Of a stretch of 64,000 nt of DNA, positions 7,016 through 52,613 are shown in pieces. The stretch comes from Cryobacterium arcticum. Lineage in GTDB: Bacteria > Actinomycetota > Actinomycetes > Actinomycetales > Microbacteriaceae. Below the pieces are notes generated by a model. That model searched no databases. It saw nothing but the letters and a program-made list of their open reading frames with translations, and was not told the DNA's origin. The DNA is taken from positions 3,720,001-3,784,000 of the forward strand of contig NZ_CP016282.1 of NCBI RefSeq assembly GCF_001679725.1, read 5' to 3'. The first letter of the stretch is position 1. Each line of letters opens with the position of its first letter. A program made the translations under genes and the position numbers.

Positions 7016-7190
7016 GGGTGGGCAACTTTCGATCGGACAGTGCCGGCACCGGCGCCCCGGCGCCGTTGACACAGAAGCTGGTGAGTACGATCAGGATACC
7101 GGTCCCTGCCCTCCGGTTTATATTCATAACGCAACAAAATGATGCCGTTCCGGCCCTAAATCAGCTCGATTTGTCACAGTGAAACCAAAC

Positions 7191-7217
7191 TTGACTTTGC
7201 TTTACTTGCAATATAGA
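7191..7217 (+). promoter_or_regulatory. Candidate promoter of the alpha-galactosidase operon
   Basis: TTGACT (7191-7196) and TATAGA (7212-7217) are separated by 15 bases, slightly short of optimal. Transcription would begin at or within a few bases of the ATG at 7227, so the message may be leaderless; no Shine-Dalgarno sequence is visible. The region from 7100 is much more AT-rich than its surroundings, as expected for a divergent control region shared with the ROK gene. Confidence 0.45.
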
Positions 7218-7226
7218 AATATATGC

Positions 7227-9407: not shown

Positions 9408-9440
9408 AGTCTTTTAGCGGATCTAGCGCAAGGAGGCGCC

Positions 9441-10757: not shown

Positions 10758-10758
10758 G

Positions 10759-11694
10759 ATGACCGACACGATCTCGCGGGCAGAGAAGCCCGCCGCAGCA
10801 CCCAAACCGGCACGCACCCGGTCGAATATCGCCCGCACGCCCCGCACCTTCTACTGGATGGTCGTGCCGGCCGTCGTGATCTTCTTCGGCCTGCACACCA
10901 TTCCGGTGCTCTCCGGCATGTTCTTCAGCCTCACCAACTACGCCGGCTACGGCACCTGGGACCTGGTCGGCTTCTCCAACTACATCAACCTGTTCCAGGA
11001 CGACCGGGTGCTCAACTCCTACGGGTTCACCTTCGGCTTCGCCATCGTGTCGACCGTGCTGGTGAACGTGATCGCGTTGGCGATCGCGCTGGGCCTCAAC
11101 TCCAAGATCAAGTTCCAGGCGGCGTTCCGCGGGGTGTTCTTCATCCCCTACGTGCTCGCGATCCTGATCATCGGCTACGTGTTCAACTACCTGTTCGCCA
11201 ACTCGTTCCCGACGATCTTCACGGCGCTGGGCCTGCCTGGCCTGTCGGGCAACCTGCTGGCCAGCCCCGACTTCGCCTGGATCGGCATCGTCATCACAAC
11301 GGTCTGGCAGGCGGCGGCGTTCAACGTCATCCTCTACCTGGCCGGGCTGCAGACGATCTCCGCCGACCTCTACGAGGCCGCCGCCATCGACGGTGCGAGC
11401 GGCTGGCGCCGGTTCCGGTCGATCACCTTCCCGCTGATCGGCGCGTACTTCACCATCAACATGGTGCTGTCGTTCAAGTCGTTCCTGCAGGTCTTCGACC
11501 AGATCGTGGCCCTCACCGCGGGAGGCCCGGGCACGTCCACCGAATCCATCGCCCTGGTCATCTTCCGAGGCGGCTTCCAGGGCGGCGAATACGGCTACCA
11601 GATGGCCAACGCCGTCGTGTACCTCTTCGTCATCATCATCGTTTCATTTCTCCAGCTGCGCATCCTGCAGCGCCGGGAGGCGAGCTTCTCATGA
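10759..11694 (+). CDS. Sugar ABC transporter permease (MalF/UgpA type)
   Basis: A 311-residue inner-membrane permease with about six transmembrane segments. The cytoplasmic EAA loop reads EAAAIDGASGWRRFRSITFP (near residues 205-224), which docks the ATPase. Typical CUT1 features include FSLTNYAGYG after the first helix and ALTAGGPGTSTE near the end. One base separates it from the binding-protein stop, and it overlaps the next permease by ATGA. No ATPase is encoded with it, so a shared MsmK/MalK-like subunit is presumed. Confidence 0.9.
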   Translation: MTDTISRAEKPAAAPKPARTRSNIARTPRTFYWMVVPAVVIFFGLHTIPVLSGMFFSLTNYAGYGTWDLVGFSNYINLFQDDRVLNSYGFTFGFAIVSTVLVNVIALAIALGLNSKIKFQAAFRGVFFIPYVLAILIIGYVFNYLFANSFPTIFTALGLPGLSGNLLASPDFAWIGIVITTVWQAAAFNVILYLAGLQTISADLYEAAAIDGASGWRRFRSITFPLIGAYFTINMVLSFKSFLQVFDQIVALTAGGPGTSTESIALVIFRGGFQGGEYGYQMANAVVYLFVIIIVSFLQLRILQRREASFS

Positions 11695-12602
11695 CCGACA
11701 CACTCACCAGCACCACGGCCCCACTGCCCGAGAGTCCGGATGCGCCCACCCGCGCCCCGCGTACCCGCCGGCGGCTCGACGGCGGCAACGGCGGCACCAA
11801 CTGGTGGCTCACCGCTCTCATCGCGGTGTGCTCCCTCACGGTTCTGATCCCGCTGTACTTCACCGTGGTCACGGCGCTCAAGACGCCCGACCAGCTCGGC
11901 GGCACCGGGTTCGAGCTGCCCACCAGTATCCGCTGGGAGAACTTCGCGGATGCCTACCAGCTGACGAACTTCCCCCGGGCGCTGATGAACACGGCCCTGA
12001 TCACGGTGGGCGCGGTGTTCCTCACCCTGCTCACCAACTCGCTGGTCGCCTACGCGATCGCCCGCAACATGCACAAGAAGTTCTTCAAGGGGCTGTACTT
12101 CTACTTCCTCGCGGCGATCTTCGTGCCGTTCCCGATCATCATGCTCCCGGTGGTCAAGGAGACCGCACTGCTCGGCCTGGACACCCCGGTGGGCCTGATC
12201 CTGCTGTACACGGTCTACGGGCTCTCGTTCAACATCTTCATCTTCGTCGCCTACATCAACTCCATTCCGGTGGAGCTCGAGGAGGCGGCGCGGCTGGACG
12301 GCGCGAGCACCTGGGGCGTGTTCTGGAAGGTGATCTTCCCGCTGCTCTCCCCTATGAACGCCACGGTCGGCATCCTCACCTGCGTCTGGGCGTGGAACGA
12401 CTTCCTGCTGCCGCTGGTGGTGCTCTCCGACCCGTCGGCACAGACCCTGCCGTTGGCGCAGTTCATCTTCCAGGGCCAGTTCAACACCAACTACCCGGTG
12501 GCGTTCGCGTCCTACCTGATGGCCTTGGCGCCGCTGCTGATCGTCTACGTGATCGCGCAGAAGTGGGTGGTGAGCGGGGTCACCCGCGGCTCGGTGAAGT
12601 AG
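11691..12602 (+). CDS. Sugar ABC transporter permease (MalG/UgpE type)
   Basis: A 303-residue inner-membrane permease and partner of the preceding one. The N-terminus is a Pro/Arg-rich cytoplasmic tail, followed by about six transmembrane helices. The EAA loop is EEAARLDGASTWGVFWKVIF (near residues 198-217), and VWAWNDFLLPLVVL is a typical CUT1 segment. It closes the alpha-galactosidase/ABC operon. No clear terminator hairpin follows; the next 120 bases instead hold what looks like a gene remnant. Confidence 0.9.
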   Translation: MTDTLTSTTAPLPESPDAPTRAPRTRRRLDGGNGGTNWWLTALIAVCSLTVLIPLYFTVVTALKTPDQLGGTGFELPTSIRWENFADAYQLTNFPRALMNTALITVGAVFLTLLTNSLVAYAIARNMHKKFFKGLYFYFLAAIFVPFPIIMLPVVKETALLGLDTPVGLILLYTVYGLSFNIFIFVAYINSIPVELEEAARLDGASTWGVFWKVIFPLLSPMNATVGILTCVWAWNDFLLPLVVLSDPSAQTLPLAQFIFQGQFNTNYPVAFASYLMALAPLLIVYVIAQKWVVSGVTRGSVK

Positions 12603-12617
12603 CCGGCTCCTCCTGGC

Positions 12618-12722
12618 CTGACCGAGGCCGACGCCCTGCGTCGACGCGCCGACCACGAATCGCGCTCGATGCAGGACGTCGCCCGGCAGGTTGCCTGGGC
12701 CTGGGCGGGCCTGCGAGGCAAG
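12618..12722 (+). pseudogene. Possible remnant of an ANTAR-domain protein
   Basis: Immediately after the permease stop, the forward frame reads LTEADALRRRADHESRSMQD, then VARQVAWAWAGLRG. This resembles the last helices of an RNA-binding ANTAR domain (pattern EADAxxxLRxxAxxxxRxxxDVAxxVV). There is no start codon, and the first two thirds of the domain are missing. The convergent membrane-protein gene ends at 12723, at the right edge. It may be a decayed C-terminal scrap left by a deletion. The match is judged by eye and could be chance. Confidence 0.3.
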
Positions 12723-13244
12723 CTAATGCACCAGGATCTTCAGCAGCACGGCCAGCAGTCCCAGCGCCGCGGTGGCCAGTGCGCCGCACACCCGCCAGTA
12801 CCAGGTGACTCCGGTTCCGCCGAAGGCGATCCAGCCCACCACGGCGAGCAGCCCTACCTCCACCCACAGCGCCGTCCAGTAGGCCACCTCGCCCTCGTGC
12901 ACCCCGAACAGGCCCAGCAGCAGGAACACCAACGGCAGCACCCCGGCCAGCAGCAGCCCCTCGGATTCGACCAGCGCGCCGCGCACCGACGCCGCCACCC
13001 GCACGGTCTCGGCGTCCGGCCGCTTGCGTTGCGCGGCGACCGTGTAGGCGAAGACCTCGGTCGCCCAGAACACCAGCACGCTGAGAAGCGTGATCGCGAA
13101 GACATCCAGGATGCCGCCGCCCTCGTCCGCCACTGCGATCACGACGCAGACGAGCACCGACCCGGAGATCAGCTCCGGGCTGATGAACCGCCGGCGCAGG
13201 CTCGCGGTCGACCAGCGGCCCGTCGCATCCGCATCCACTCGCAT
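12723..13244 (-). CDS. Hypothetical membrane protein
   Basis: A 173-residue protein with about four hydrophobic segments, near residues 28-45, 48-66, 95-115 and 125-172, and an Arg-rich connecting loop (AAQRKRPDAETVRV). I do not recognise the family. Several acidic residues lie in or near the membrane segments. The ATG at 13244 is preferred because an AGGGG site lies just upstream; an ATG at 13262 has none. It is downstream of a TetR gene on the same strand (88-base gap) and may be co-transcribed with it. Confidence 0.6.
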   Translation of the reverse strand: MRVDADATGRWSTASLRRRFISPELISGSVLVCVVIAVADEGGGILDVFAITLLSVLVFWATEVFAYTVAAQRKRPDAETVRVAASVRGALVESEGLLLAGVLPLVFLLLGLFGVHEGEVAYWTALWVEVGLLAVVGWIAFGGTGVTWYWRVCGALATAALGLLAVLLKILVH

Positions 13245-13331
13245 CCATCCCCTGCCGCGCATCGGCAGCTTTGCTACGAACTGTGCCCCGACCCCCGACC
13301 GGCGTCTAGGCCTGTCCGCGGAACGGCTCAC

Positions 13332-13889
13332 TCAGCCGACCGGCGCCTCCCGCGTGGCCGTGATCGCCGCGACGATCCGCTCGACCCCGTATTGCCAGGC
13401 GGTCTCGACGTTGCCGCCGAGATTGAAGCCGCCGTTCAGCTCCATGGTGATGAAGCCGGCCGCCCACGCGGTCAAGGTGCGGGCCGCCTCGAGGGCATGT
13501 TCCTCGCCCGCCAGTTCATCGGCCACACGCAGGATGGCCGCACTCGCCGCCCGCACGAATTCGTCGCCGACCGCGGGCACGCCGGGCCCGGGCGTCATGA
13601 TCAGCTGAAAAGCGGCCGGTCGCTCGTGACCGATCGCGCGCAGCGCGTTGGCCAGCTCGACCGGCCCGACGGCGGCATCCAGCCGGCCGGCGAGCTCGGT
13701 GATGGTGGTCTCCGCGACCAGCTGGATCAGCCGTTCCCGGCTGGGCACTCTCTTGTACAGCGACGGCGCCCGCACACCGACGCGCTGGGCGACGGCCTGC
13801 ATGGTCACCCCCGCGAGCCCGCTCTGCTCGAGCAGGTCAGCAGCGGCGAGCACGATGGCGTCGAGAGAAGTCCGGTCTGGAGTGGGCAT
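13332..13889 (-). CDS. TetR/AcrR-family regulator
   Basis: A 185-residue regulator. The N-terminal HTH (SGLAGVTMQAVAQRVGVRAP followed by SLYKRVPSR) is typical of TetR, and the C-terminus is an all-helical ligand domain (TetR_C_33-like, WAAGFITMELNGGFNLGG). The start is the ATG at 13889. An upstream ATG at 13919 would place the operator repeats inside the gene. It is divergent from a metallo-beta-lactamase-fold gene, and the 53-base gap holds repeated ATAGCCAT-type sites. It probably represses both itself and that gene. Confidence 0.87.
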   Translation of the reverse strand: MPTPDRTSLDAIVLAAADLLEQSGLAGVTMQAVAQRVGVRAPSLYKRVPSRERLIQLVAETTITELAGRLDAAVGPVELANALRAIGHERPAAFQLIMTPGPGVPAVGDEFVRAASAAILRVADELAGEEHALEAARTLTAWAAGFITMELNGGFNLGGNVETAWQYGVERIVAAITATREAPVG

Positions 13890-13898
13890 GATTCGAGT

Positions 13899-13941
13899 AT
13901 AGCTATTGACGATAGCCATGATGGCTATGTAGCATAGCCAT
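13899..13941. promoter_or_regulatory. TetR operator cluster between divergent genes
   Basis: Four related 8-base sites fill the divergent gap: ATAGCTAT (13899-13906), ATAGCCAT (13912-13919), its inverted copy ATGGCTAT (13921-13928), and ATAGCCAT (13934-13941). The middle pair is a perfect 17-base palindrome centred on G13920. The last site ends one base before the ATG at 13943. The TetR protein encoded at 13332 is the obvious binder. Confidence 0.7.
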
Positions 13942-13942
13942 C

Positions 13943-14659
13943 ATGAAACTCGGACCTCACCTCCACCGCATCGGCAACGACATCGTCGCCGTCTACCTCG
14001 TCGACACCGACGAGGGAGTGACCGTCATCGACGCCGGGCTGCCCGGTCTCTGGCGCGAACTACTCACCGAACTCGCCTCCATGGGCCGCACCCTCGCCGA
14101 CGTGAAGGGCGTGATCCTCACCCACGGTGACGGCGATCATGTCGGCTTCGCCGAACGCCTGCGCCGCGATCACGGCGTGCCCGTCTTCGTGCACCCCGGT
14201 GACGCCGACCGCGCGAAGGGCGGTAAGAAGCCGGCCAACGCCAAGCAGTCGATGAAACTCGGCCCCCTCTTGGGCTTCGTCGGCTACTCCCTCCGCAAGG
14301 GCGGCATACGCGCGACCTACCTAACCGAGGTCGCCCTCGCGCACGACGGCGAGACTCTCGACCTGCCCGGCGCACCCCGGATCATCGCGCTGCCCGGGCA
14401 CTCGGCCGGCAGCATCGCGATCCACGTTCCGGTCGCCGACGCCGTTTTCGTCGGCGACGGACTCACCACCCGTCACGTGCTCACCGGCCAGATGGGCCCA
14501 CAGCCGGCGCCGTTCACCGACGAACCGGACCAGGCGATCGCCTCGCTCCGGGCTCTGCTGCCCACCGGTGCAACCTGGGTGCTGCCCGGCCACGGCGCCC
14601 CGTGGAACGGCGGGGTCGCCGCAGCGGTCGCCGCGGTCGAGAAGGCGGCGCACGCCTGA
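13943..14659 (+). CDS. Metallo-beta-lactamase-fold hydrolase
   Basis: A 238-residue MBL-fold protein. The metal-binding motif is THGDGDHVG near residues 53-61, the HxDxDH variant of HxHxDH. A second ligand block is LPGHSAGSIAIHV near 151-163, followed by FVGDG and the C-terminal LPGHG. MBL enzymes hydrolyse esters, thioesters, lactones or lactams; AHL lactonase-like or detoxification roles are possible but unproven. There is no signal peptide, so it is cytoplasmic. It is controlled by the divergent TetR through the sites at 13899-13941. Confidence 0.85.
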   Translation: MKLGPHLHRIGNDIVAVYLVDTDEGVTVIDAGLPGLWRELLTELASMGRTLADVKGVILTHGDGDHVGFAERLRRDHGVPVFVHPGDADRAKGGKKPANAKQSMKLGPLLGFVGYSLRKGGIRATYLTEVALAHDGETLDLPGAPRIIALPGHSAGSIAIHVPVADAVFVGDGLTTRHVLTGQMGPQPAPFTDEPDQAIASLRALLPTGATWVLPGHGAPWNGGVAAAVAAVEKAAHA

Positions 14660-41115: not shown

Positions 41116-41667
41116 TCAGGCGACGTCGACGGCCGGCACCAGCGCGGCCAGCTCCGCCAACTGGGAGGCGAGCGCCCGCTCGTGACGCTCGGACGGCAGG
41201 AACACGCCCTCGACGACGTGCTCGGCCACCCAGGCGATCTCCACATTGGCCGCGAGCACCCGCATGCCGAGGTTCACCATCACCGGCTGCAGCGCCGTGA
41301 CCGCCCGGGTGCCGCCGGAGAGCCCGCCGTAGCTGACCAGCCCAACGGGCTTGCCCGCCCACTCGCCGTGCAGGTGGTCGATCGCGTTCTTCAGCGGGGC
41401 GGAGTAACTGTGGTTGTACTCCGGCAGCACGAAGATCACAGCGTCCACAGCCTCCACCCGGCGGCTCCACTCCCAGGTGAGCTCGCTCGTGTACTGCTTG
41501 AGGCGAGGATGGTGGGGCTCGGCCAGCATCGGCAGCACGAACGCGGCGAGGTCCACCACATCCACCTCGACATCGCCGGCCTGCCGCGCCGCCTGCGCGA
41601 CCCAGTCGCCCACCGGCCCGCCGACCCGGCCCACCCGGGTGCTCGCGATCACAACCATCAACCTCAT
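41116..41667 (-). CDS. NAD(P)H-dependent FMN reductase
   Basis: A 183-residue flavodoxin-like protein. It opens RLMVVIASTRVGRVGGPVGD (phosphate loop), then PEYNHSYSAPLKNAIDHLHG, the FMN/active-site block of the NADPH-dependent FMN reductase family, and VSYGGLSGGTRA. It supplies reduced flavin or reduces quinones. The start overlaps the stop of the IclR gene (ATGA), so the two are coupled. Its place next to an aromatic-degradation operon suggests it serves a flavin monooxygenase or a quinone intermediate, but no monooxygenase gene is in the window. Confidence 0.87.
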   Translation of the reverse strand: MRLMVVIASTRVGRVGGPVGDWVAQAARQAGDVEVDVVDLAAFVLPMLAEPHHPRLKQYTSELTWEWSRRVEAVDAVIFVLPEYNHSYSAPLKNAIDHLHGEWAGKPVGLVSYGGLSGGTRAVTALQPVMVNLGMRVLAANVEIAWVAEHVVEGVFLPSERHERALASQLAELAALVPAVDVA

Positions 41668-42470
41668 CTGTCGGCCACCTCTCCCACGGGCCGCGCATCC
41701 CAGCGTGCCCAATCTGCGCTGATTCCCTCGGCTGCGCGCAACAGCTGCGGCAGGTAGTCGTCGACCAGGGTCTGCATGCTCGTCTCGTACGCATGCGTGT
41801 TGAGATTGACGGCCGCGACAACCGCACCCGCGCCATTGCGGATGGGTGCCGCGACCGACCGGATGGCCGGAGCCAGCTGTTGGTCGGTGATCGCCCAGCC
41901 GCGTTCCCGCACCTCGGCGAGCGCCGCATCGATCTCGGTCCGGCTGGGCGTCCAGACCGCCGTCACGGGCGACCGGCTCGGCTTGCTCAGCGTCGCCTCG
42001 AGGGCATCCGGGGTCAGCCCGGCCAGCAGCACCTTGCCGAGCGAGGTCGCGTAGGCGGGAAACCGGGTGCCGATCGTGACCGACAGCGCCACCAGCTTGG
42101 GCACGGCCACCCGGGCGACGTAGACCACGTCGGCGCCGTCGAGTTGGGCCACCGAGCAGGACTCGTTCACGCGGGTGCTCAGGTCGGTGAGGTGCGGCCG
42201 GGAGAGCTCCCAGATGTTGCTCGAGCACACGTAGGCCATGCCCAGCTCCAGCACCCGCGGGGTGAGGCTGAAGCCGGCATCGTCGCTCCGCACATAGCCG
42301 AGCTCGGCCAGGGTGATCAGGATGCGCCGAGCGGTGGGCCGGGCGAGCCCTGTCGCGGTCGCCACCTCACTGAGGTTGAGCACCGGGCGGCCGGGGGCGA
42401 AGACCGTGAGCACGTCCAGGCCGCGGGCAATCGCCTCGATGAAATCGGGACTCTCGGTGGCGCGCGCCAT
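41664..42470 (-). CDS. IclR-family regulator (PcaR/PobR-like)
   Basis: A 268-residue regulator. The HTH lies near residues 28-50 (LNLSEVATATGLARPTARRI), and the effector domain has SCSVAQLDGADVVYVARV, FPAYATSLGKVLLAGL and AVNLNTHAYETSMQTLVDDY. The last block is typical of the Pca/Pob group that senses aromatic acids. The start is ATG 42470 with AGAGG upstream. It is divergent from the CoA-transferase operon, and a perfect palindrome sits between them. Confidence 0.88.
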   Translation of the reverse strand: MARATESPDFIEAIARGLDVLTVFAPGRPVLNLSEVATATGLARPTARRILITLAELGYVRSDDAGFSLTPRVLELGMAYVCSSNIWELSRPHLTDLSTRVNESCSVAQLDGADVVYVARVAVPKLVALSVTIGTRFPAYATSLGKVLLAGLTPDALEATLSKPSRSPVTAVWTPSRTEIDAALAEVRERGWAITDQQLAPAIRSVAAPIRNGAGAVVAAVNLNTHAYETSMQTLVDDYLPQLLRAAEGISADWARWDARPVGEVADR

Positions 42471-42556: not shown

Positions 42557-42585
42557 TATAGATCACTGTCCGCCCAGCGGACAGT
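42557..42585. promoter_or_regulatory. Promoter -10 and IclR operator of the CoA-transferase/dioxygenase operon
   Basis: TATAGA (42557-42562) is followed directly by a perfect palindrome with arms ACTGTCCGC (42565-42573) and GCGGACAGT (42577-42585) around CCA. The palindrome covers the expected transcription start, which fits repression. Its inner core, TCCGC-N3-GCGGA, is the same as at 230-250. No good -35 was found at standard spacing; a TTGACC lies 22 bases upstream. Confidence 0.65.
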
Positions 42586-42609
42586 CGTCCGCAGAATTGA
42601 AAGGCAAAG

Positions 42610-43860
42610 ATGCCTCACCCATTCGCATCGACCCCCACGGGTGCCCCGCGCACCGTCGAGGCGCCCGCACCCCAGGCCGGCCCGCTCGACGGCCTGCTCG
42701 TGGCCGACTTCTCCCGTGTCTTGGCCGGCCCGTACTCCACCCAGCTGATGGGCGACCTCGGCGCCACCATCGTCAAGGTGGAGGGCCCCTCCGGCGACGA
42801 GACCCGCGACTGGGCGCCGCCCGAACGCGACGGCGTCTCCACGTACTACCTGGGCGTCAACCGCAACAAGCGCAGCATCACCCTCAACCTCGCCGACGCC
42901 GGCGATCGCTCTCTCGCGCAGGAACTCGCCCGCCGGGCCGACATCGTGATCGAGAACTTCAAGCCGGGGGGCCTGGCCAAGTTCGGCCTGGACTACGCCT
43001 CCGTGCGCGAAGGCAACCCGGCCGTGATCTACGCGTCGATCAGCGGCTTCGGCACCGCCGGCGGCGCCGCGCTGCCCGGCTACGACCTGATCGTGCAGGC
43101 CATGAGCGGCCTGATGAGCCTCACCGGCGACGCCGACGGCACCCCGTTCCGCAGCGGAGTCTCGGTGTTCGACGTCATGACGGGCATGCAGGCCACCGTC
43201 GGCATCCTGGCTGCGCTCAACCACCGCAACAGCACCGGGCAGGGCCAGCAGGTGGAGGTGAACCTGCTCTCCACCGCCCTGTCGGCGATGGCCAACCACA
43301 GTTCCACCTACGTCGCGGGCGGCCAGGTGCCGTTCCGCATGGGCAATGCCCACCCCAGCCTGTTCCCCTACGAACCCCTGCCGGCCAGCGACGGTGACAT
43401 CGTGATCGTGGCGGCCAACGATGCCCAGTTCGTCAAGCTCGCGGGCGCGCTCGGCCACCCGGAGTGGGCCGAAGACGACAGGTTCGCCCGCACCGTGTCC
43501 CGCAATCAGAACCGGGAGACGCTCCGGCCGCTACTGGTGGCCGCCCTCGCCACGAAGACCACCGCAGAGTGGTTCGATGAGCTCACCCTGGCCGGAGTGG
43601 CCTGCGGACCGATCAACACCATCGACGACGGCGTTGCCCTGGCCGAACGGCTGGGCCTCAAGCCGGTCGTGCAGGTGGGCACGGGCGACGCGGCCATCCC
43701 CATGGTGCGCAACCCCATCGACTTCTCCCTCACCCCCGCCCGCTACCTGTCACCGCCACCCGCGCTCGGGCAGGATGCCGCGGAGATCCGCCAGTGGCTC
43801 TCCCGATCTGACGCCGACCACGAGAACATCCCCTACGACGAGAGCGAGTTCGACCTGTGA
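42610..43860 (+). CDS. CaiB/BaiF family CoA-transferase (class III)
   Basis: A 416-residue class III CoA-transferase. It has LLVADFSRVLAGPYSTQLMG, then DLGATIVKVEGPSGDETRDW, including the conserved Asp that carries the CoA-thioester intermediate in the family (in GYDLIVQAMSGLMS). VFDVMTGMQATVGILAAL is a family motif. It moves CoA between carboxylic acids. It is the first gene of a tight five-gene operon and overlaps the next by GTGA. It probably activates the ring-cleavage product made by the LigAB enzyme. Confidence 0.9.
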   Translation: MPHPFASTPTGAPRTVEAPAPQAGPLDGLLVADFSRVLAGPYSTQLMGDLGATIVKVEGPSGDETRDWAPPERDGVSTYYLGVNRNKRSITLNLADAGDRSLAQELARRADIVIENFKPGGLAKFGLDYASVREGNPAVIYASISGFGTAGGAALPGYDLIVQAMSGLMSLTGDADGTPFRSGVSVFDVMTGMQATVGILAALNHRNSTGQGQQVEVNLLSTALSAMANHSSTYVAGGQVPFRMGNAHPSLFPYEPLPASDGDIVIVAANDAQFVKLAGALGHPEWAEDDRFARTVSRNQNRETLRPLLVAALATKTTAEWFDELTLAGVACGPINTIDDGVALAERLGLKPVVQVGTGDAAIPMVRNPIDFSLTPARYLSPPPALGQDAAEIRQWLSRSDADHENIPYDESEFDL

Positions 43861-44648
43861 CCGACTACCCCACCGGCCTGGGCACCAGCGACCGCGACAC
43901 CATCTCGCTGCTCGGCCACGACCTCGCCGGCGACCTGCTCGGCACCGTCACCTTCGGCGAACTCGCCTTCTGGCTGGCCACCCAGCAGCGACCCACCCCC
44001 GGGCAGCTGCGCGTGTTCGAGGCCGTTCTCGTCTCGCTGGCCGACCACGGCTTCACCCCCACCGCCATCGCCGCCCGGCTCACCTACTACTCCGCCCCCG
44101 ACTCGCTGCAAGGCGCCATAGCCGCGGGCCTGCTCGGCGGTGGCAGCCGCTTCCTCGGCGTCACCGAAGACACCGGAATGTTCCTGCACACCGCGCTGGC
44201 CGACCTCGGCGACACGAGCGGCTTCACCGACGAGCAGTGGGATGCCGCGGCCCTCACCCTGCTCACCCAGACGAAGCAGTCCGGCCGCCGGGTGCCCGGC
44301 CTCGGCCATCCGGTGCACAAGCTGCGCGATCCCCGCACTGACGTGATCATCCGCATCGCCGATGAGCAGGGCCTGCGCGGTGCGCACCTGCGCCTGTTCG
44401 AGGCCATCGGCCGCACCAACGGCCAGGTGCTGGGCAAGGACCTGCCGCTGAACGGCGCGGGTGTGGCCGGCGCCGCGCTGGCCGACCTGGGCCTGCCCAT
44501 CGAGCTGCTGCGCGGCTTCGCCCTGCTCGCCCGCACCGCCGGGCTGATCGGCCACCTCGCCGAGGAGCGCATCAACCCCATCGCCCCGGCGATCTACGCC
44601 GAGGTCGACCGCAACGCCGTGTACGTGCCCGCCATCCCCACCAACTAG
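43857..44648 (+). CDS. Citryl-CoA lyase-like protein (citrate synthase superfamily)
   Basis: A 263-residue short member of the citrate synthase superfamily. It keeps the core motif VPGLGHPVHKLRDPRTDV (near residues 147-164), with the His that corresponds to the second catalytic His of citrate synthase. The first-His segment (GPLHGGA in citrate synthase) reads LLGGGSRFLG, and the NVD motif carrying the catalytic Asp appears as LPLNGAGVAG. So it is unlikely to be a synthase; a lyase or retro-aldol role on an acyl-CoA is more plausible. It overlaps the CoA-transferase gene by GTGA, implying joint action. Confidence 0.8.
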   Translation: MTDYPTGLGTSDRDTISLLGHDLAGDLLGTVTFGELAFWLATQQRPTPGQLRVFEAVLVSLADHGFTPTAIAARLTYYSAPDSLQGAIAAGLLGGGSRFLGVTEDTGMFLHTALADLGDTSGFTDEQWDAAALTLLTQTKQSGRRVPGLGHPVHKLRDPRTDVIIRIADEQGLRGAHLRLFEAIGRTNGQVLGKDLPLNGAGVAGAALADLGLPIELLRGFALLARTAGLIGHLAEERINPIAPAIYAEVDRNAVYVPAIPTN

Positions 44649-44688
44649 TCCAGCGTCAGCCTCGAAGCAGAAGTCTCGAAGGAGAGAA

Positions 44689-45549
44689 ATGGCCACCCTG
44701 AGCGCGGTGCTCGCCACCACCCACCACCCGTTCTACCTCAAAGCCACCACGGCGCCGCCGGAAGAGCGGATGCCGCAGGCCGACGAGTGGAAGCGCAAGG
44801 TGGAGGCCTATCGCGAGACCCTCACGGTGGCCAAGCCCGACATCCTGGTGATGGTCGGTGCCGACCACTTCCATCAGTTCTTCTCCGACAACTACCCCAC
44901 CTTCCTCATCGGCAAGCAGCCGATGTACGACGCCACCTTCTACAACGAGACCCGGGAGTTCGGTCTGCCGACCTTCCTGCTGCAGGGCCACGAGGAGCTT
45001 TCCGGCTACATGTTGCAGGGGCTGCTCGACCGCGGCTTCGACTTCTCGGTCAGCCACGAGCTCAAGATCGACCACTCGATCATCTGCCCGATCATCACCA
45101 CCCGGCCGGATGCCGACCTGCCGATCGTGCCCATCTACACGAACATCTTCGCTCCCCCGCTGCCGAGCCCCAAGCGGTTCTGGGACCTGGGCCGGGCCAT
45201 CCGTTCGATCATCGACGAGTGGCCGAGCGACCTGCGGGTGGCGGCGGTGGGCAGCGGTCACCTCTCGCTCGAGCTCGGCGGCCCGCGCCAGTTCGGCGAG
45301 ACCGGCCCCGACCCCGAGTTCGACCTGCAGGCCATCGAGTGGCTGCGCACCGGTGACATCGACGGGATCCTCGCCAACGTCACCCACGAGAGCATGTCGG
45401 GTGCCGGCAACGCCACCCACGGGTTCATGGACCTGATCCTGATGATGGGCATCGCCGGGCCGATCGAGGCGTCCTACGTCGACAGCCTCGACCTCTTCCA
45501 TACCCGCGAGGCCTATGTGACGTGGTACCCGGAGGGGGCGCCGTCGTGA
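44689..45549 (+). CDS. Class III extradiol dioxygenase catalytic subunit (LigB family)
   Basis: A 286-residue non-haem iron(II) enzyme of the LigB superfamily. Candidate iron ligands are His in ATTHHPFYLK and in GADHFHQFF, and a later Glu/His. SHELKIDHSIICPI, GSGHLSLEL and GNATHGFMDLILMMG are further conserved blocks. It opens an aromatic ring next to a hydroxyl group, using O2. GAAGGAGAG precedes the ATG. The small LigA-type subunit is encoded immediately after with a GTGA overlap, as in protocatechuate 4,5-dioxygenase but with reversed gene order. Protocatechuate, gallate or a relative is likely. Confidence 0.88.
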   Translation: MATLSAVLATTHHPFYLKATTAPPEERMPQADEWKRKVEAYRETLTVAKPDILVMVGADHFHQFFSDNYPTFLIGKQPMYDATFYNETREFGLPTFLLQGHEELSGYMLQGLLDRGFDFSVSHELKIDHSIICPIITTRPDADLPIVPIYTNIFAPPLPSPKRFWDLGRAIRSIIDEWPSDLRVAAVGSGHLSLELGGPRQFGETGPDPEFDLQAIEWLRTGDIDGILANVTHESMSGAGNATHGFMDLILMMGIAGPIEASYVDSLDLFHTREAYVTWYPEGAPS

Positions 45550-45911
45550 GCATCTACTACGTGAACAAGTTCCTGTTCCAGGTCGACGCCGACCCCGAGC
45601 TGCTCGCCCGGTACAAGGCCGACCCGGCCGAGCTGGTGGCCTGGTGGGAGACGGAGCGCGGACCCTGGTTGAACCGGGTGGAACGCACCACCTGGTTGGG
45701 CTTCACCGACACCGAACGCCGCGCGCTCGTCGAGCACGACTACGTGACCCTGTTCGAACTCGGTGCGCACTTCTTCCTCTCGCTCACGATCTTCATCGCG
45801 ATCTACGACGCCGACTACGCCGCCCGGTCCGGCCCGCTCTCCTTCCAACGGGAGTACGGCGCCAACCTCGCCCACTGGATGGGCAAGGAGTACCCGAGCG
45901 TCGCCCTGTAA
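45546..45911 (+). CDS. LigA-like alpha subunit of extradiol dioxygenase
   Basis: A 121-residue all-helical subunit of the LigA family. It contains VNKFLFQVDADPELLARYKA, the block FTDTERRALVEHDYVTLFEL and the tail GAHFFLSLTIFIAIYDADY. In protocatechuate 4,5-dioxygenase this subunit caps the active site of LigB. It begins at GTG within the stop of the catalytic-subunit gene, so the two are made in a fixed ratio. Homologues often have the order ligA-ligB; the reverse is seen here. Confidence 0.87.
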   Translation: MSIYYVNKFLFQVDADPELLARYKADPAELVAWWETERGPWLNRVERTTWLGFTDTERRALVEHDYVTLFELGAHFFLSLTIFIAIYDADYAARSGPLSFQREYGANLAHWMGKEYPSVAL

Positions 45912-45967
45912 CACTGCCGCACCGCCCCCAGTTCGTCATTCGCCCGACTAAGGCAAAGGAGCCCGTC

Positions 45968-47437
45968 ATGCCCGTCACCCCCGTTCCCGCCCTGCCCGAC
46001 CACGCGCCGCCCGCCACGGTTTTCCGCGACGCCACCGTGCTCACGATGGATGCCGGCCGGCAGATCCTGCCGCACACCGATGTGCTCATCGTCGACGACA
46101 GCATTGCGGCGATCGGCCCGCACCTCGTGGTGCCGGACGGCACCTTCGAGATCGACGCGGCCGGCGGCATCCTGATGCCGGGCATGATCGACACGCACCG
46201 GCACATGTGGCAGACCGCGATGCGCGGCTACGGCGCCGACTGGACCCTCACCCAGTACTTCGTCTGGTACTACCTCGAACACGGCAAGCACTTCCGCCCG
46301 CAGGATGTCTACGCCGGCAACCTGCTCTCCTCGCTCGACGCCATCGACGCCGGCATCACCACCACGGTGGACTGGTCGCACGGGCTGCGCACCATCGAGC
46401 ACGCTGAGGCGGCGCTCGCGGCGCTGCAGGAGGCGCCCGGCCGCTCGGTGCTGGCCTACGGCAACATCTTCGCCGGGCCCTGGGAGTGGTCGGACTCCGA
46501 CGAGTTCAAGGCCTTCGCCGCCGCCCGCGAGAAGGGCAACGAGATGCTTGGCTTCCAGATGGCGTTCGACGTCACCGGCGATCCCACCTTCCCCGAGCGG
46601 CGCGCCTTCGAGGTGGCTCGCGACCTCGACCTGGCCGTCACCACGCACGCCGGGGTGTGGGGAGCGACCAACGACGACGGCATCCGGCTGATGTACGAGA
46701 ACGGCTTCATGACCCCCGGCACGGTCTACGTGCACGCGGCCACCCTCTCCGACGACTCCTACCAGCGCATCGCCGCCACCGGTGGATCGGTGTCGCTGTC
46801 GACCGAGAGCGAGCAGAGCTGCGGCCAGGGCTACCCGCCGTCGTGGGTGCTGCGCTCGCACGGCATCCCGGTGTCTCTCTCGGTGGACACCAGCGTCTGG
46901 TTCAGCAGCGACCTGTTCGCCGCGATGCGCACCACCCTCGGCGCCGACCGCTCGATCGAGCACATGAAGGCGCACGAGCTGGGCGACACCGTCACGCACT
47001 CGCACCTGCGCGCCGAACACGTGGTGGACTGGGCCACCCGCGGCGGCGCAGCAGCACTCGGCAAGGAGGCCACCCTGGGCTCTATCGAGGTGGGCAAGAA
47101 GGCGGATGTGGTGCTGGTGAAGAACGACGCCTCACCGTCGATGTTCCCGGTTCTGAACCCTTACGGGCACATCGCCCTGCAGGCCAACCGGGCCGACGTG
47201 CACACCGTGCTCGTGAACGGGAGGATCGTCAAGTACGCCAACGCCCTCGTCGGCGACCAGCTCGCGACGGCCCGCACCGCGGTGGAGGACACCATCACCC
47301 ACCTGCAGTCCACCCTCGGCGATGAGGTCTGGAACGCGGGCATGAACCCCGACATCCCGGCCACGAAGATCCTCGACAACCCGTACACCTACACGGAGTA
47401 CCGCACGAGCTCGACGCACGAGGCCGCGGAGGTCTGA
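45968..47437 (+). CDS. Amidohydrolase (TrzA/AtzA-like deaminase family)
   Basis: A 489-residue metal-dependent hydrolase of the cytosine deaminase/triazine hydrolase group. Metal ligands are visible: HxH in MIDTHRHMWQ (near residue 77), His in VTTHAGVWG, His in VYVHAATLSD and Asp in SLSVDTSVWF. The small beta-sandwich halves flank the barrel (VLIVDDSIAAIGPHL at the start and ADVHTVLVNGRIVKYANAL at the end). AAAGGAG precedes ATG 45968. It ends the dioxygenase operon. Such enzymes remove an amine or other leaving group from a ring or amidine-like compound, suggesting the substrate carries nitrogen. Confidence 0.87.
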   Translation: MPVTPVPALPDHAPPATVFRDATVLTMDAGRQILPHTDVLIVDDSIAAIGPHLVVPDGTFEIDAAGGILMPGMIDTHRHMWQTAMRGYGADWTLTQYFVWYYLEHGKHFRPQDVYAGNLLSSLDAIDAGITTTVDWSHGLRTIEHAEAALAALQEAPGRSVLAYGNIFAGPWEWSDSDEFKAFAAAREKGNEMLGFQMAFDVTGDPTFPERRAFEVARDLDLAVTTHAGVWGATNDDGIRLMYENGFMTPGTVYVHAATLSDDSYQRIAATGGSVSLSTESEQSCGQGYPPSWVLRSHGIPVSLSVDTSVWFSSDLFAAMRTTLGADRSIEHMKAHELGDTVTHSHLRAEHVVDWATRGGAAALGKEATLGSIEVGKKADVVLVKNDASPSMFPVLNPYGHIALQANRADVHTVLVNGRIVKYANALVGDQLATARTAVEDTITHLQSTLGDEVWNAGMNPDIPATKILDNPYTYTEYRTSSTHEAAEV

Positions 47438-49506: not shown

Positions 49507-49911
49507 ATGCCTCAGATACGGATCAAAGACGCGGCCGCGTTCCTCAGCGTCAGCGACGACACCGTGCGGCGCTGGATCGAGAACGGCACCCTGCCCAGCT
49601 CGAAGGATGCCTCCTCCCGCACCGTTGTCGACGGCCTCGCGCTGGCCCGGCTGGCCCGCCAGAACGCGGTGCTGCCCGACGACCCGTCCGGGATCGGCCG
49701 CTCAGCCCGCAACCGGTTTGTCGGCCTGGTGACCGACATCGTCATGGACACCGTCATGGCGCAGGTCGAGATCCAGTGCGGTCCGCACCGGGTGGTGTCG
49801 CTGATGAGCAGCGAGGCCGTGCGCGAGCTCGGCCTCGAACTCGGCTCGGTGGCCATCGCCGTCGTCAAGGCCACCACAGTCATCGTCGAGACCCCGGCGG
49901 GCAAGTCGTGA
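49507..49911 (+). CDS. Molybdenum-binding protein with N-terminal HTH and C-terminal Mop (TOBE) domain
   Basis: A 134-residue two-domain protein. Residues 1-45 are an excisionase/MerR-type HTH (IKDAAAFLSVSDDTVRRWIE). Residues 65-134 are a Mop/TOBE domain that binds molybdate (NRFVGLVTDIVMDTVMAQVE, VVKATTVIVET). It precedes modABC with a GTGA overlap, and probably senses or stores molybdate and controls the operon. A TAGAGT box 7 bases before the ATG suggests a leaderless message. Confidence 0.87.
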   Translation: MPQIRIKDAAAFLSVSDDTVRRWIENGTLPSSKDASSRTVVDGLALARLARQNAVLPDDPSGIGRSARNRFVGLVTDIVMDTVMAQVEIQCGPHRVVSLMSSEAVRELGLELGSVAIAVVKATTVIVETPAGKS

Positions 49912-50711
49912 CCGGCACACGTCGACTCCGCCCATTCGCTCTGCTGGCCGCGTTCGGCATCCTGGCCGCCGGCCTCACCGGCTGCGCGGCACCCGCCGGG
50001 ACGGCTTCCACCTCCTCGGCCTCGGCCGACGGCCTCGAGGGCAGCATCACCGTCTTCGCCGCGGCCTCACTTACGGCCACGTTCACCGAACTCGTCGACG
50101 CCTTCGAGGCCGAGCACCCCGGCACCACGGTGGCGCTCAACTTCGCCGGCTCCTCCGACCTCGTCACCCAGATCACCGAGGGCGCCCCGGCCGACGTGTT
50201 CGCCTCCGCCGACACCAAGAACATGACCAAGCTCACGGATGCCGGCCTCCAGCAGAGAGACCCCGTCGACTTCGCCACCAATGTGCTCGAGATCGCCGTG
50301 CCGCCGGGCAACCCCGCCGGCATCACCGACTTCGCCGACCTGGCTGAGCCCGGGCTCCAACTGGTCGTCTGCGCCCCCGCGGTGCCGTGCGGTTCGGCCA
50401 CCGCCGCCGTCGCGTCGGCGGCCGGGGTCAGCCTCAGCTCGGTGAGCGAGGAGTCATCGGTCACCGATGTGCTCGGCAAGATCACCTCCGGCCAGGCGGA
50501 CGCCGGCCTGGTCTACGTCACGGATGTCCAGGCGGCGGGCGACGCCGTCGAGGGCATCGACTTCGCCGAGTCCGGCGAGGCCGTGAACACCTACCCGATC
50601 GTGGCGCTCAAGGGCTCCGCCGAGGCGGATGTCGCCCAGGCCTTCATCGACTACGTCACCGGTAGCGCCGGCCAGCGCGTGCTGGCGGCCGCCGGGTTCG
50701 GGGCACCGTAA
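49908..50711 (+). CDS. modA: Molybdate ABC transporter substrate-binding lipoprotein
   Basis: A 267-residue binding protein. The lipobox LTGC is near residues 23-26, after an Arg-containing signal peptide. The mature part has [40 protein letters not shown] and FASADTKNM, the ModA oxyanion-binding segments. [10 protein letters not shown] is also conserved. It starts at GTG overlapping the stop of the HTH-Mop gene. It captures molybdate or tungstate outside the membrane. Confidence 0.93.
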
Positions 50712-50715
50712 CCGC

Positions 50716-51534
50716 ATGAGCCCGGCAGCGAAGCAGTATTCCGGCGTCCCCGCCTGGGTCGCCACCCTCGCCGTGGTCGGCGCGGCATTTGTGCTGCTGC
50801 CCCTGGCGGCGATGGTGCTGCGGGTCAACTGGGCGGAGTTCATTCCGTTGATCACCTCGGAGTCCTCGGTTGCCGCGCTGCTGCTCAGCCTGCGCACGTC
50901 GCTCGCGGCCACGGCGCTCTGCGTGCTCTTCGGGGTGCCCATGGCGCTGGTGCTGGCCCGCACCCACTTCTGGGGGCAGAAGATGCTCCGCTCGCTGGTG
51001 CTGCTGCCGCTGGTGCTCCCGCCGGTCGTGGGCGGCATCGCCCTGCTCTACACCTTCGGCCGCCGGGGCCTTCTGGGCCAGACCTTCCAGGCGCTGGGCA
51101 TCGAGATCGCCTTCTCGACCACGGCCGTCGTCATCGCGCAGACCTTTGTGGCGCTGCCGTTCCTGGTGCTCAGCCTCGAAGGCGCGTTGCGCACGGTGGG
51201 CACCCGTTACGAGGCCGTCGGGGCCACCCTCGGGGCGAGCCCCACGACGGTATTGCGGCGCATCACCCTGCCGCTCGTCGTGCCGGCCGTCATCTCCGGC
51301 GCGGTGCTGTCGTTCGCCCGCGCGCTCGGCGAGTTCGGCGCCACCCTCACCTTTGCCGGCAGTCTGCAGGGCACCACCCGTACCCTGCCACTGGAGATCT
51401 ACCTGCAGCGGGAGACCGACCCCGACACCGCGGTGGCCCTCTCGCTCGTGCTGGTGCTCGTGGCGATCGTGATCGTGAGCCTGGCCCACCGTGCGGGCCT
51501 GCCCTCCCTGCGGCCGGCTCGGGTGCCCTCGTGA
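50716..51534 (+). CDS. modB: Molybdate ABC transporter permease
   Basis: A 272-residue permease with about five to six transmembrane segments. The coupling loop reads [20 protein letters not shown] (near residues 167-186), typical of ModB, and [18 protein letters not shown] is the conserved C-terminal block. It starts 4 bases after the modA stop and overlaps modC by GTGA. With ModA and ModC it forms the importer. Confidence 0.93.
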
Positions 51535-52613
51535 GCTTCTCCGTCGACGTGCATGTCGCCGAGCGGGACGTGCGCCTGCACCTCACCGTGGCGGCGGGCG
51601 AGACCGTCGCGGTCCTCGGGCCGAACGGCGCCGGCAAGTCCACGCTGCTCGGCGCGATCGCCGGTCTGATCAGGCCCGACAGCGGGCGGAGCGAGCTGAA
51701 CGGCACGGTGCTGTTCGACCTGCCGGACGGGCCGGGCCGCGGCATCTGGCGGCCGGCGCACCAGCGCGGCGTCTCCCTCCTCGCCCAGGAACCCCTGCTG
51801 TTCCCGCACCTCAGCGTGCTCGACAACGTCGCATTCGGCCCGCGCAGCACCGGCGCCACGACGGCCGGCGCCCGCGAGACGGCCGCCCGTTGGCTGGGCG
51901 AGGTGGATGCCGAACCGCTCGCGGCGCGTCGCCCGGCCGAGCTGTCCGGCGGGCAGGCGCAACGCATCGCGGTGGCCCGCGCCTTGGCCTCCGACCCCGG
52001 CCTGCTGCTGCTCGACGAACCGCTGGCCGCCCTTGACGTCTCGGTGGCGCCGGCGGTGCGGCGGATGCTGCGCCGCGTGCTTGTCGATCGCAGTGCCGTC
52101 ATCGTGACGCACGATGTGCTCGACGCGTACACGCTCGCCGATCGGGTGGTCATCGTGGAGAACGGCCGGATCAGCGACGAGGGCATCCCTGCCGAGGTCT
52201 TCGACCTTCCCCGGGGCGCCTTCGCGGCCTCACTTTCCGGGGTCAACCTGGTCACCGGCATCCGTCGCGGTCACACCCTCCTGACCGCGGAGGGCGACGA
52301 GATCACCCTCGCCGCCGACGGGACCGCGCCCGAGGGCGCCCGGTTGTCACTCGCGGTTCGTCCCGCCGCGGTGACGGTGACGGTCGAGCAGCCCACCGAC
52401 CTGGCCGTCACCCGGGTGTGCGCGCGCATGATCGACCTCGAACCCCGCGGCGACGTCGTGCGAGTCCGCAGCTCCGTGCTGGCCGCGGATGTCAGCCCAC
52501 AGCAGGCGGCCCAGCTCGACCCGGCCGTCGGCTCCCCGGTCTGGTTCTCGTTTCCGGCGAGCGCGGGCACGCTCTATCCCAGCGCCCGAGCCGAGGACCC
52601 CAGCGGCAATTGA
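51531..52613 (+). CDS. modC: Molybdate ABC transporter ATP-binding protein
   Basis: A 360-residue ATPase. Walker A is GPNGAGKST (near residues 33-41), the signature [10 protein letters not shown] (near 139-148), and Walker [13 protein letters not shown], followed by the switch His in VIVTHD. Residues after about 245 form a C-terminal TOBE-like regulatory domain ([14 protein letters not shown]), which in ModC binds molybdate. It drives import by ATP hydrolysis. It is the last gene of the operon. Confidence 0.93.

What the first reader, a model, noticed from the sequence alone, without database searches (positions are those of the whole stretch)
42610..47437. Candidate undescribed pathway: CoA-transferase, citryl-CoA-lyase-like, LigB-LigA and amidohydrolase in one operon
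Five genes lie in one tight transcript, three junctions overlapping or coupled. LigAB cleaves a hydroxylated ring; the CoA-transferase would activate the product; the citrate-synthase-like protein could split the acyl-CoA; the amidohydrolase suggests a nitrogen-bearing substrate. Known protocatechuate/gallate meta pathways end with a free-acid aldolase, not CoA activation and a citryl-CoA-lyase-like step. The meta-cleavage product 4-carboxy-4-hydroxy-2-oxoadipate is citrate-like, so a CoA-dependent retro-aldol route is plausible. The pathway is inference.
Basis: partly seen in the sequence, partly recalled or inferred. Interest (0 to 1): 0.72.

Follow-up and report, generated by a model that had tools for sequence, protein, structure and literature searches.

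The report
Conserved ring-degradation operon, unusual enzymes
A five-gene operon whose core recurs in bacteria of two phyla probably breaks down a still unknown ring compound through a coenzyme-A-dependent end route, but two of its enzymes lack key residues of the enzymes they are named after, so the chemistry first proposed for it is doubtful.

Summary
The operon is real: CaiB, CCL (citryl-CoA-lyase-like), LigB, LigA and an amidohydrolase at 42610-47437, facing an IclR-type regulator and an FMN reductase. It is not chance. CaiB and CCL accompany LigB-LigA in 57 of 60 loci of Actinomycetota and Alphaproteobacteria; in a separate draw of 396 Actinomycetota genomes, 8 of 9 with LigB carry the whole set. 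A palindromic operator (42567-42583) lies at 30 of 35 CaiB starts, at 11 of 11 oppositely transcribed amidohydrolase genes and at 7 of 7 FAD-hydroxylase genes; reversed-pattern control 0. CCL-CaiB also sits beside hydroxyquinol-type intradiol dioxygenases, and LigB-linked CCLs are not one lineage. A ring-cleavage plus CoA module is therefore well supported. The chemistry first proposed is not: LigB lacks the catalytic His (67 of 67) and iron-binding Glu of DesB, CCL lacks two of three citrate-synthase catalytic residues (62 of 62), and an RraA-type CHA-aldolase query found nothing in this genome. Substrate unknown; I favour a quinol-type ring over protocatechuate or gallate.

The parts
41116..41667 (-). 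NADPH-dependent FMN reductase; overlaps the regulator gene by 4 bases; possible quinone reductase (role inferred)
   Evidence: PF03358 E 3e-37; an FMN reductase is in 25 of 60 loci
41664..42470 (-). IclR-type regulator, close to the PcaR/PcaU/PobR family
   Evidence: PF01614, PF09339; TIGR02431 271.7 bits, below its cut-off 284.75; a regulator is in 53 of 60 loci
42565..42592 (.). Operator: perfect 9-base inverted repeat ACTGTCCGC-N3-GCGGACAGT (42565-42585) plus a third half-site
   Evidence: the only perfect TGTCCGC-N3-GCGGACA in the genome; at 30 of 35 CaiB starts, control 0 of 35
42610..43860 (+). CaiB/BaiF (family III) CoA-transferase
   Evidence: PF02515 E 1.3e-117; Asp159 in 62 of 62; in 57 of 60 loci
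43857..44648 (+). CCL: citrate-synthase-fold protein named citryl-CoA lyase, active site altered
   Evidence: NF004868 275 bits; best solved relative 6hxp; residues
44689..45549 (+). LigB-like protein, catalytic His and iron-ligand Glu of DesB/LigAB replaced
   Evidence: PF02900 E 3.4e-27
45546..45911 (+). LigA-like small partner, very divergent
   Evidence: no Pfam, NCBIfam or PDB match; in 60 of 60 loci; hhalign 98.3% to the LigB partner of L073, 24.0% to a canonical LigA of L149
45968..47437 (+). Amidohydrolase of the PRK08204 type; probable feeder enzyme (inferred)
   Evidence: PF01979 E 9.5e-27; in 41 of 60 loci; own operator in 11 of 11 loci where it is on the strand opposite CaiB

Best explanation
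One IclR-controlled catabolic unit. The regulator acts at the TGTCCGC-N3-GCGGACA operator. The LigB/LigA-like pair opens the ring of a hydroxylated aromatic or heteroaromatic compound; because residues needed to handle a catechol are missing, I think the ring is of the hydroquinone or hydroxyquinol type and gives a maleyl-type acid. CaiB puts CoA on the open-chain acid and the citrate-synthase-fold protein splits the ester into acetyl-CoA (or a similar acyl-CoA) and a small acid. The amidohydrolase (a FAD hydroxylase or an esterase-like hydrolase in some other hosts) prepares the ring substrate, and the FMN reductase may keep it in the quinol form. Shown: gene content, conservation, shared operator sites, module exchange, residue changes. 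Inferred: operator binding, ring opening, substrate class, order of steps, products.
For: CaiB, CCL, LigB and LigA together in 57 of 60 loci and in 8 of 9 LigB genomes of a separate draw. Shared operator at CaiB, separately transcribed amidohydrolase and FAD-hydroxylase genes. LigB-LigA is paired with different CCL lineages: in 27 loci CaiB is 29-34% and CCL 37-42% identical to the window's while LigB is 74-85%. CCL-CaiB sits with an intradiol dioxygenase, FAD hydroxylase and LeuCD in Burkholderia glumae, whose intradiol enzyme is a hydroxyquinol 1,2-dioxygenase relative (5e-88 to 8r2x). The FAD hydroxylase in L063 resembles 2-hydroxybiphenyl 3-monooxygenase and PnpA (7e-29, 1e-28). No RraA-type CHA aldolase in the genome.
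Against: No enzyme was assayed. LigB lacks the base and the Glu ligand that known LigAB enzymes need, so ring opening itself is unproven. CCL lacks two catalytic residues, so its reaction is unproven. The quinol-type substrate rests on analogy with a different operon and on recalled chemistry. L034 and L045 (full-length stretches) and L025 carry LigB-LigA without CaiB or CCL, and two Rhizobium plasmids carry LigB-LigA without them nearby.
Confidence: 0.45

Rival explanations
1. LigB-LigA is not an oxygenase: the changed metal site does another reaction (hydrolysis, hydration, isomerisation) on a non-aromatic or already opened acid that CaiB and CCL then process.
For: Catalytic His and Glu ligand lost in 67 of 67. 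CCL also occurs without any recognised ring-cleavage gene: 7 of 16 contexts in the Pseudomonadota draw if VOC proteins are counted as possible oxygenases, 13 of 16 if not.
Against: A LigA-type partner is always kept (60 of 60). FAD hydroxylases share the operator in 7 of 7 loci that have one. The same CCL-CaiB end goes with true intradiol dioxygenases.
Confidence: 0.2
2. LigB-LigA still opens a catechol, aminophenol or hydroxypyridine ring by normal extradiol chemistry, with His191 or another His taking over as base and ligand.
For: His12, His60 and His129 (DesB His12, His59, His124) and new His13, His62 and His191 are invariant in 67 of 67. L152 and L153 have lost the base but keep the Glu. 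PydA, given as a 3,4-dihydroxypyridine dioxygenase, is in PF02900 (PMC7356986).
Against: His192Phe inactivates DesB (PMC3962378). No carboxylate at the Glu column in 67 of 67.
Confidence: 0.15
3. One reading: LigAB cleaves protocatechuate or gallate, 4-carboxy-4-hydroxy-2-oxoadipate forms, CaiB activates it and CCL splits it like citryl-CoA.
For: Closest solved relatives of LigB are DesB and LigAB. No CHA aldolase or OMA hydratase homologue found in the genome.
Against: LigB residues; CCL residues; no OMA hydratase-like gene (no positive control); CCL cleavage of that CoA ester would give acetyl-CoA and 2,4-dioxoglutarate, a poor product (chemical reasoning).
Confidence: 0.08
4. The amidohydrolase is the ring-opening dioxygenase, as shown for KpiC on 3,4-dihydroxypyridine, and LigB-LigA does a later step.
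For: KpiC (475 aa, PF01979) opens 3,4-dihydroxypyridine (PMC7356986, passages and section 3.4). The amidohydrolase shares the operator and lacks the deaminase Glu.
Against: KpiC is nearest to enamidase, while this one is nearest to ATZ/TRZ-type enzymes. It was not found in 19 of 60 loci.
Confidence: 0.07
5. The genes are neighbours by accident and belong to unrelated pathways.
For: CCL and CaiB also occur in other contexts.
Against: 57 of 60 loci, two phyla, several gene orders, different CCL lineages, shared operator.
Confidence: 0.02

Closest known systems
Protocatechuate/gallate 4,5-cleavage operons (lig, pmd, pcm; LigAB, DesB)
   Same: LigB fold and a LigA-type partner; conserved His12, His59 and His124 equivalents
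   Different: Catalytic His and Glu ligand replaced; no OMA hydratase or RraA-type CHA aldolase found in the genome, whereas known operons such as that of Pseudarthrobacter Sphe3 list both (PMC8431788 passages); CoA genes instead
Citryl-CoA lyase (6hxp) and ATP-citrate lyase/citrate synthase
   Same: Citrate-synthase fold family, PGxGH motif
   Different: The His of GSAHGG and the Asp of NVDG in 6hxp are F/I/V/Y and A/S in 62 of 62
Hydroxyquinol-type intradiol operon with CCL, CaiB, LeuC, LeuD (Burkholderia glumae plasmid)
   Same: Same CCL family and a CaiB, beside a ring-cleavage dioxygenase and a FAD hydroxylase
   Different: Intradiol enzyme in place of LigB-LigA; CCL 37% and CaiB 33% identical to the window's; its substrate is unknown to me too
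3,4-Dihydroxypyridine pathways (PydA; KpiA-KpiC)
   Same: PydA is in PF02900 and KpiC in the amidohydrolase superfamily; FAD hydroxylase first (PMC7356986)
   Different: The word CoA does not occur in that paper's text; the PydA motif DDHFENH given in PMC3637104 is not the ADHFHQF of this LigB
Itaconate/citramalate CoA pathways
   Same: Acid CoA-transferase followed by a CoA-ester lyase (PMC12290011, abstract start in the listing only)
   Different: No ring-cleavage gene; the lyase there is (S)-citramalyl-CoA lyase, of the CitE type as I recall, not citrate-synthase fold

Membership tests
Class III (LigAB-type) extradiol dioxygenase | LigB domain PF02900 | tested here: met
   E 3.4e-27, 95.6 bits, cut-off 26.3
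Class III (LigAB-type) extradiol dioxygenase | Fe(II) ligands His12, His59, Glu239 (DesB numbering; PMC3962378) | tested here: not met
   Both His kept in 67 of 67; no acidic residue at the Glu column: H/A/G 59/7/1 by the alignment, or an almost invariant Gly245 by that
Class III (LigAB-type) extradiol dioxygenase | Acid/base His124 and His192 (DesB) | tested here: not met
   His124 kept, His192 is Leu194 in 67 of 67 and in 9 further members
Class III (LigAB-type) extradiol dioxygenase | LigA alpha subunit | tested here: inconclusive
   Always adjacent (60 of 60); no Pfam match; hhalign 24.0% to a canonical LigA, 98.3% to the partner in L073
Class III (LigAB-type) extradiol dioxygenase | O2-dependent ring cleavage | not testable with these tools
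   needs an assay
Citryl-CoA lyase | NCBIfam PRK06224.1-5 over cut-off | tested here: met
   275.1 against 193 bits
Citryl-CoA lyase | Catalytic residues at the H274, H320 and D375 positions of citrate synthase (numbering recalled) | tested here: not met
   Only the second kept; other two replaced in 62 of 62
Family III CoA-transferase | PF02515 and the catalytic Asp (position recalled from formyl-CoA transferase) | tested here: met
   E 1.3e-117; Asp159 in 62 of 62
ATZ/TRZ-type amidohydrolase (deaminase) | Metal-site residues HxH, His, His, Asp | tested here: met
   His77, 79, 227, 256 in 45 of 45; Asp307 in 44 of 45 and one gap
ATZ/TRZ-type amidohydrolase (deaminase) | Glu three residues after the third His (deaminase acid, recalled) | tested here: not met
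   V/T/P/A/S in 45 of 45
Protocatechuate/gallate 4,5-cleavage pathway | CHA aldolase in the genome | tested here: not met
   no match at E<=1e-3; the same query rings in 56 of 149 Actinomycetota genomes
Protocatechuate/gallate 4,5-cleavage pathway | OMA hydratase in the genome | tested here: inconclusive
   no match, but no positive control was run
PcaR/PcaU/PobR regulators | TIGR02431 over cut-off | tested here: not met
   271.7 against 284.75 bits: a close relative, not filed as a member

The most novel reading that the evidence does not exclude
An undescribed aerobic route for ring compounds: a LigB/LigA enzyme with a rebuilt, His-only metal site opens a quinol-type ring, and a CaiB transferase with a citrate-synthase-fold lyase of rebuilt active site forms an exchangeable CoA-dependent end module that is also used behind hydroxyquinol-type intradiol enzymes.
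Probability: 0.35. Interest if true: 0.8.

Novelty: new variant of a known kind. Interest (0 to 1): 0.6.

Why it matters
If true, aromatic degradation has an end route besides the aldolase, thiolase and reductase endings, shared by Actinomycetota and Proteobacteria and hidden under the misleading names 'protocatechuate 4,5-dioxygenase' and 'citryl-CoA lyase'. It would also show that the LigB fold can work, or has been put to other use, without its Glu ligand and catalytic His. The shared operator gives a direct handle: the inducer of the regulator should be, or be close to, the substrate.

Tried and rejected
Considered and dropped or left open. (1) Riboflavin, vitamin B6, nicotine, mimosine and isonicotinate breakdown as the source of the substrate, from memory; I saw no neighbouring gene that supports one of them. 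(2) 3,4-Dihydroxypyridine: the genes described in PMC7356986 and PMC3637104 do not match this set. (3) A hydratase partner: LeuD is near in 6 of 60 loci and LeuC in none; a LeuD query finds one gene in the window's genome, elsewhere; so no hydratase is claimed here. (4) VOC proteins beside CCL-CaiB (L069, L137, L139, L140, L141, L144, L145) could be one-domain extradiol enzymes or epimerases. The seven scanned with Pfam or listed there match Glyoxalase only weakly (six scanned; PDB for one), so they are not counted as ring-cleavage enzymes.

Literature: no paper describing a CaiB plus citryl-CoA-lyase-like step after ring cleavage appeared in the listings of searches (open PMC library; most subscription papers are missing; listings of 32, 102 and 106 were capped at 30 of 235, 12 of 174 and 10 of 49). 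Seen: PMC3962378, PMC3637104 and PMC8431788 as passages; PMC7356986 as passages and the whole of section 3.4; PMC12290011 in a listing only.
Full report
What is there. The window comes from a Cryobacterium-like genome: its LigB is 100% identical to that of C. arcticum SK-1. The operon is CaiB 42610-43860, CCL 43857-44648, LigB 44689-45549, LigA-like 45546-45911 and amidohydrolase 45968-47437. Divergent from it lie an IclR-type regulator, 41664-42470, and an FMN reductase, 41116-41667. Two of the four operon junctions overlap by 4 bases; the others are gaps of 40 and 56 bases. A search of the genome with this LigB finds only this gene at E<=0.001.

Is it more than chance. A scan of one genome per species, by peptide patterns from this LigB, gave 60 loci with relatives of 74-100% identity in Actinomycetota and Alphaproteobacteria. 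In them LigA is found in 60 of 60, CaiB in 57, CCL in 57, a regulator in 53, the amidohydrolase in 41, an FMN reductase in 25, and a FAD hydroxylase and LeuD in 6 each (some stretches are cut short by contig ends). The loci without CaiB and CCL are L025 (11.7 kb), L034 and L045 (both full length); the whole genome of L034 has no CCL over the family cut-off (best 136 bits). An independent draw of 396 Actinomycetota genomes gave 9 with this LigB, the window's genome among them. Of the 8 others, 7 hold IclR, CaiB, CCL, LigB, LigA and amidohydrolase together; in the eighth (L129) only LigB and LigA were found, on a contig that ends about 2 kb beyond LigB. With the window that is 8 of 9. The eight other LigBs are 61-67% identical to the window's.

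Shared operator. The IclR-CaiB gap holds a perfect 9-base inverted repeat at 42565-42585 followed by a third half-site. It is the only perfect TGTCCGC-N3-GCGGACA in the genome; one other place has one mismatch. In 35 loci with a regulator at least 50% identical to the window's (the window included), a site with at most 2 mismatches lies near 30 of 35 CaiB starts; the reversed control pattern gives 0 of 35. Misses: L038, L057 and L063, where CaiB stands behind a FAD hydroxylase gene that has a site; L054, where the site was found at the regulator start; and L130 (3 mismatches). The amidohydrolase start has a site in 11 of 30 loci: exactly the 11 in which it is on the strand opposite to CaiB, and none of the 19 in which it is on the same strand. 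The FAD hydroxylase start has one in 7 of 7. CCL and LigB starts have none (0 of 35 each), and controls are 0 throughout. The loci are related to one another and the pattern was read from them, so these are not independent trials. In alphaproteobacterial loci, whose regulators differ, no such conserved site is seen.

Exchangeable front and back ends. In 27 of the 57 loci CaiB is 29-34% and CCL 37-42% identical to the window's while LigB is 74-85%; in the other 30 all three are close (CaiB 59-90%, CCL 62-93%, LigB 76-99.7%). On a tree of 70 CCLs (of 98; near-copies dropped) well-supported branches force at least four changes of the label 'LigB-linked'. One clade is actinobacterial, one of Hyphomicrobiales next to intradiol-linked CCLs, and one of Sulfitobacter, Martelella, Chelativorans and related MAGs next to VOC-linked CCLs. 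Some branches are long and the root is a midpoint. Outside LigB loci, CCL and CaiB sit with an intradiol dioxygenase, a FAD hydroxylase, LeuC and LeuD in Burkholderia glumae, and with an intradiol dioxygenase, an HMG-CoA-lyase-like gene and LeuC in Cupriavidus necator N-1. In a draw of 398 Pseudomonadota genomes 17 hold a CCL over the cut-off. Of the 16 contexts fetched (the 17th is the genome of L014, used as centre, which has LigB-LigA and CaiB), 12 have a CaiB, 2 an intradiol dioxygenase, 1 LigB-LigA and 6 a VOC protein, 5 of these with MetE-like genes; 4 have no recognised CaiB. The B. glumae intradiol enzyme is a clear homologue of hydroxyquinol dioxygenases (5.2e-88 to 8r2x). I conclude that CaiB-CCL is a general end module and that LigB-LigA is one of several front ends. 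That the front ends all open rings is inference by exchange, not an assay.

What speaks against the chemistry first proposed. In DesB the iron is held by His12, Asn57, His59 and Glu239, and His124 and His192 act as acid and base; the mutants His124Phe and His192Phe are inactive (PMC3962378, passages). In 67 members (window plus 66 loci) the equivalents of His12, His59 and His124 are invariant, but the His192 column is Leu194 in all 67. No acidic residue stands at the Glu239 column: in the alignment it is position 244 (His 59, Ala 7, Gly 1), in that it is Gly245, at least 97% conserved. Nine further members agree on Leu194 and His191. A LigB from a canonical CHA-aldolase operon (L149) shows the usual residues in the same alignment. 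Invariant His13, His62 and His191 suggest a rebuilt metal site; this could not be modelled. More distant LigBs L152 and L153 share the His192 loss but keep the Glu, and L073 and L151 lack both. CCL keeps the His of PGxGH (62 of 62), but the GSAHGG His and the NVDG Asp of 6hxp are F/I/V/Y and A/S (62 of 62); that these are H274 and D375 of citrate synthase is recalled. The amidohydrolase keeps its metal residues but has no Glu at the deaminase position (45 rows; role recalled).

Mechanism I favour (0.45). A feeder enzyme makes a hydroxylated ring: the amidohydrolase here, a FAD hydroxylase or a CocE-type hydrolase in some other hosts. The FMN reductase may keep it reduced. LigB-LigA opens it, CaiB makes a CoA ester, CCL cleaves it. 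The missing catechol residues, the hydroxyquinol-type enzyme of the parallel operon, the PnpA-like hydroxylase and the LeuC/LeuD neighbours of some relatives (which hydrate maleate-like acids; recalled) make a quinol-type ring and a maleyl-type product more likely to me than a catechol. All of this paragraph is inference.

What is known. Protocatechuate 4,5-operons, including that of the actinobacterium Pseudarthrobacter Sphe3, list OMA hydratase and CHA aldolase (PMC8431788, passages). The window's genome gives no match to a CHA-aldolase query that rings in 56 of 149 Actinomycetota genomes, many of those weak family hits, nor to an OMA-hydratase query (no positive control). Searches of the open literature listed no description of this combination.

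Noticed in passing
L075 (Burkholderia glumae plasmid), 7071-14600: Operon of intradiol dioxygenase, CCL, FAD hydroxylase, CaiB, LeuC, LeuD and a TIM-barrel protein; nine B. glumae plasmid records are listed with this CCL.
   Followed up: partly
L137, L139, L140, L144, L145: CCL and CaiB with a VOC protein and MetE-like (cobalamin-independent methionine-synthase-type) genes in unnamed Pseudomonadota genomes; function unknown.
   Followed up: partly
L065 (4425-5653) and L066 (11974-13202): LigB-LigA of the same family on Rhizobium plasmids without CaiB or CCL nearby, beside a cytochrome P450 and hydrolases.
   Followed up: no
L073 (9001-10163) and L151 (3881-5040): A more distant group of LigB-like proteins, each with a small partner, that also lacks both the catalytic His and the Glu ligand.
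   Followed up: no
L063, 13384-13974; L033, L035, L038, L039, L057, L059: A lone LeuD gene near LigB-LigA with no LeuC found in the stretch; it may borrow the LeuC of leucine synthesis.
   Followed up: partly
window 49776-52613: By eye from the translations, a molybdate-type ABC transporter set (binding protein, permease, ATPase) downstream of the operon; probably unrelated.
   Followed up: no
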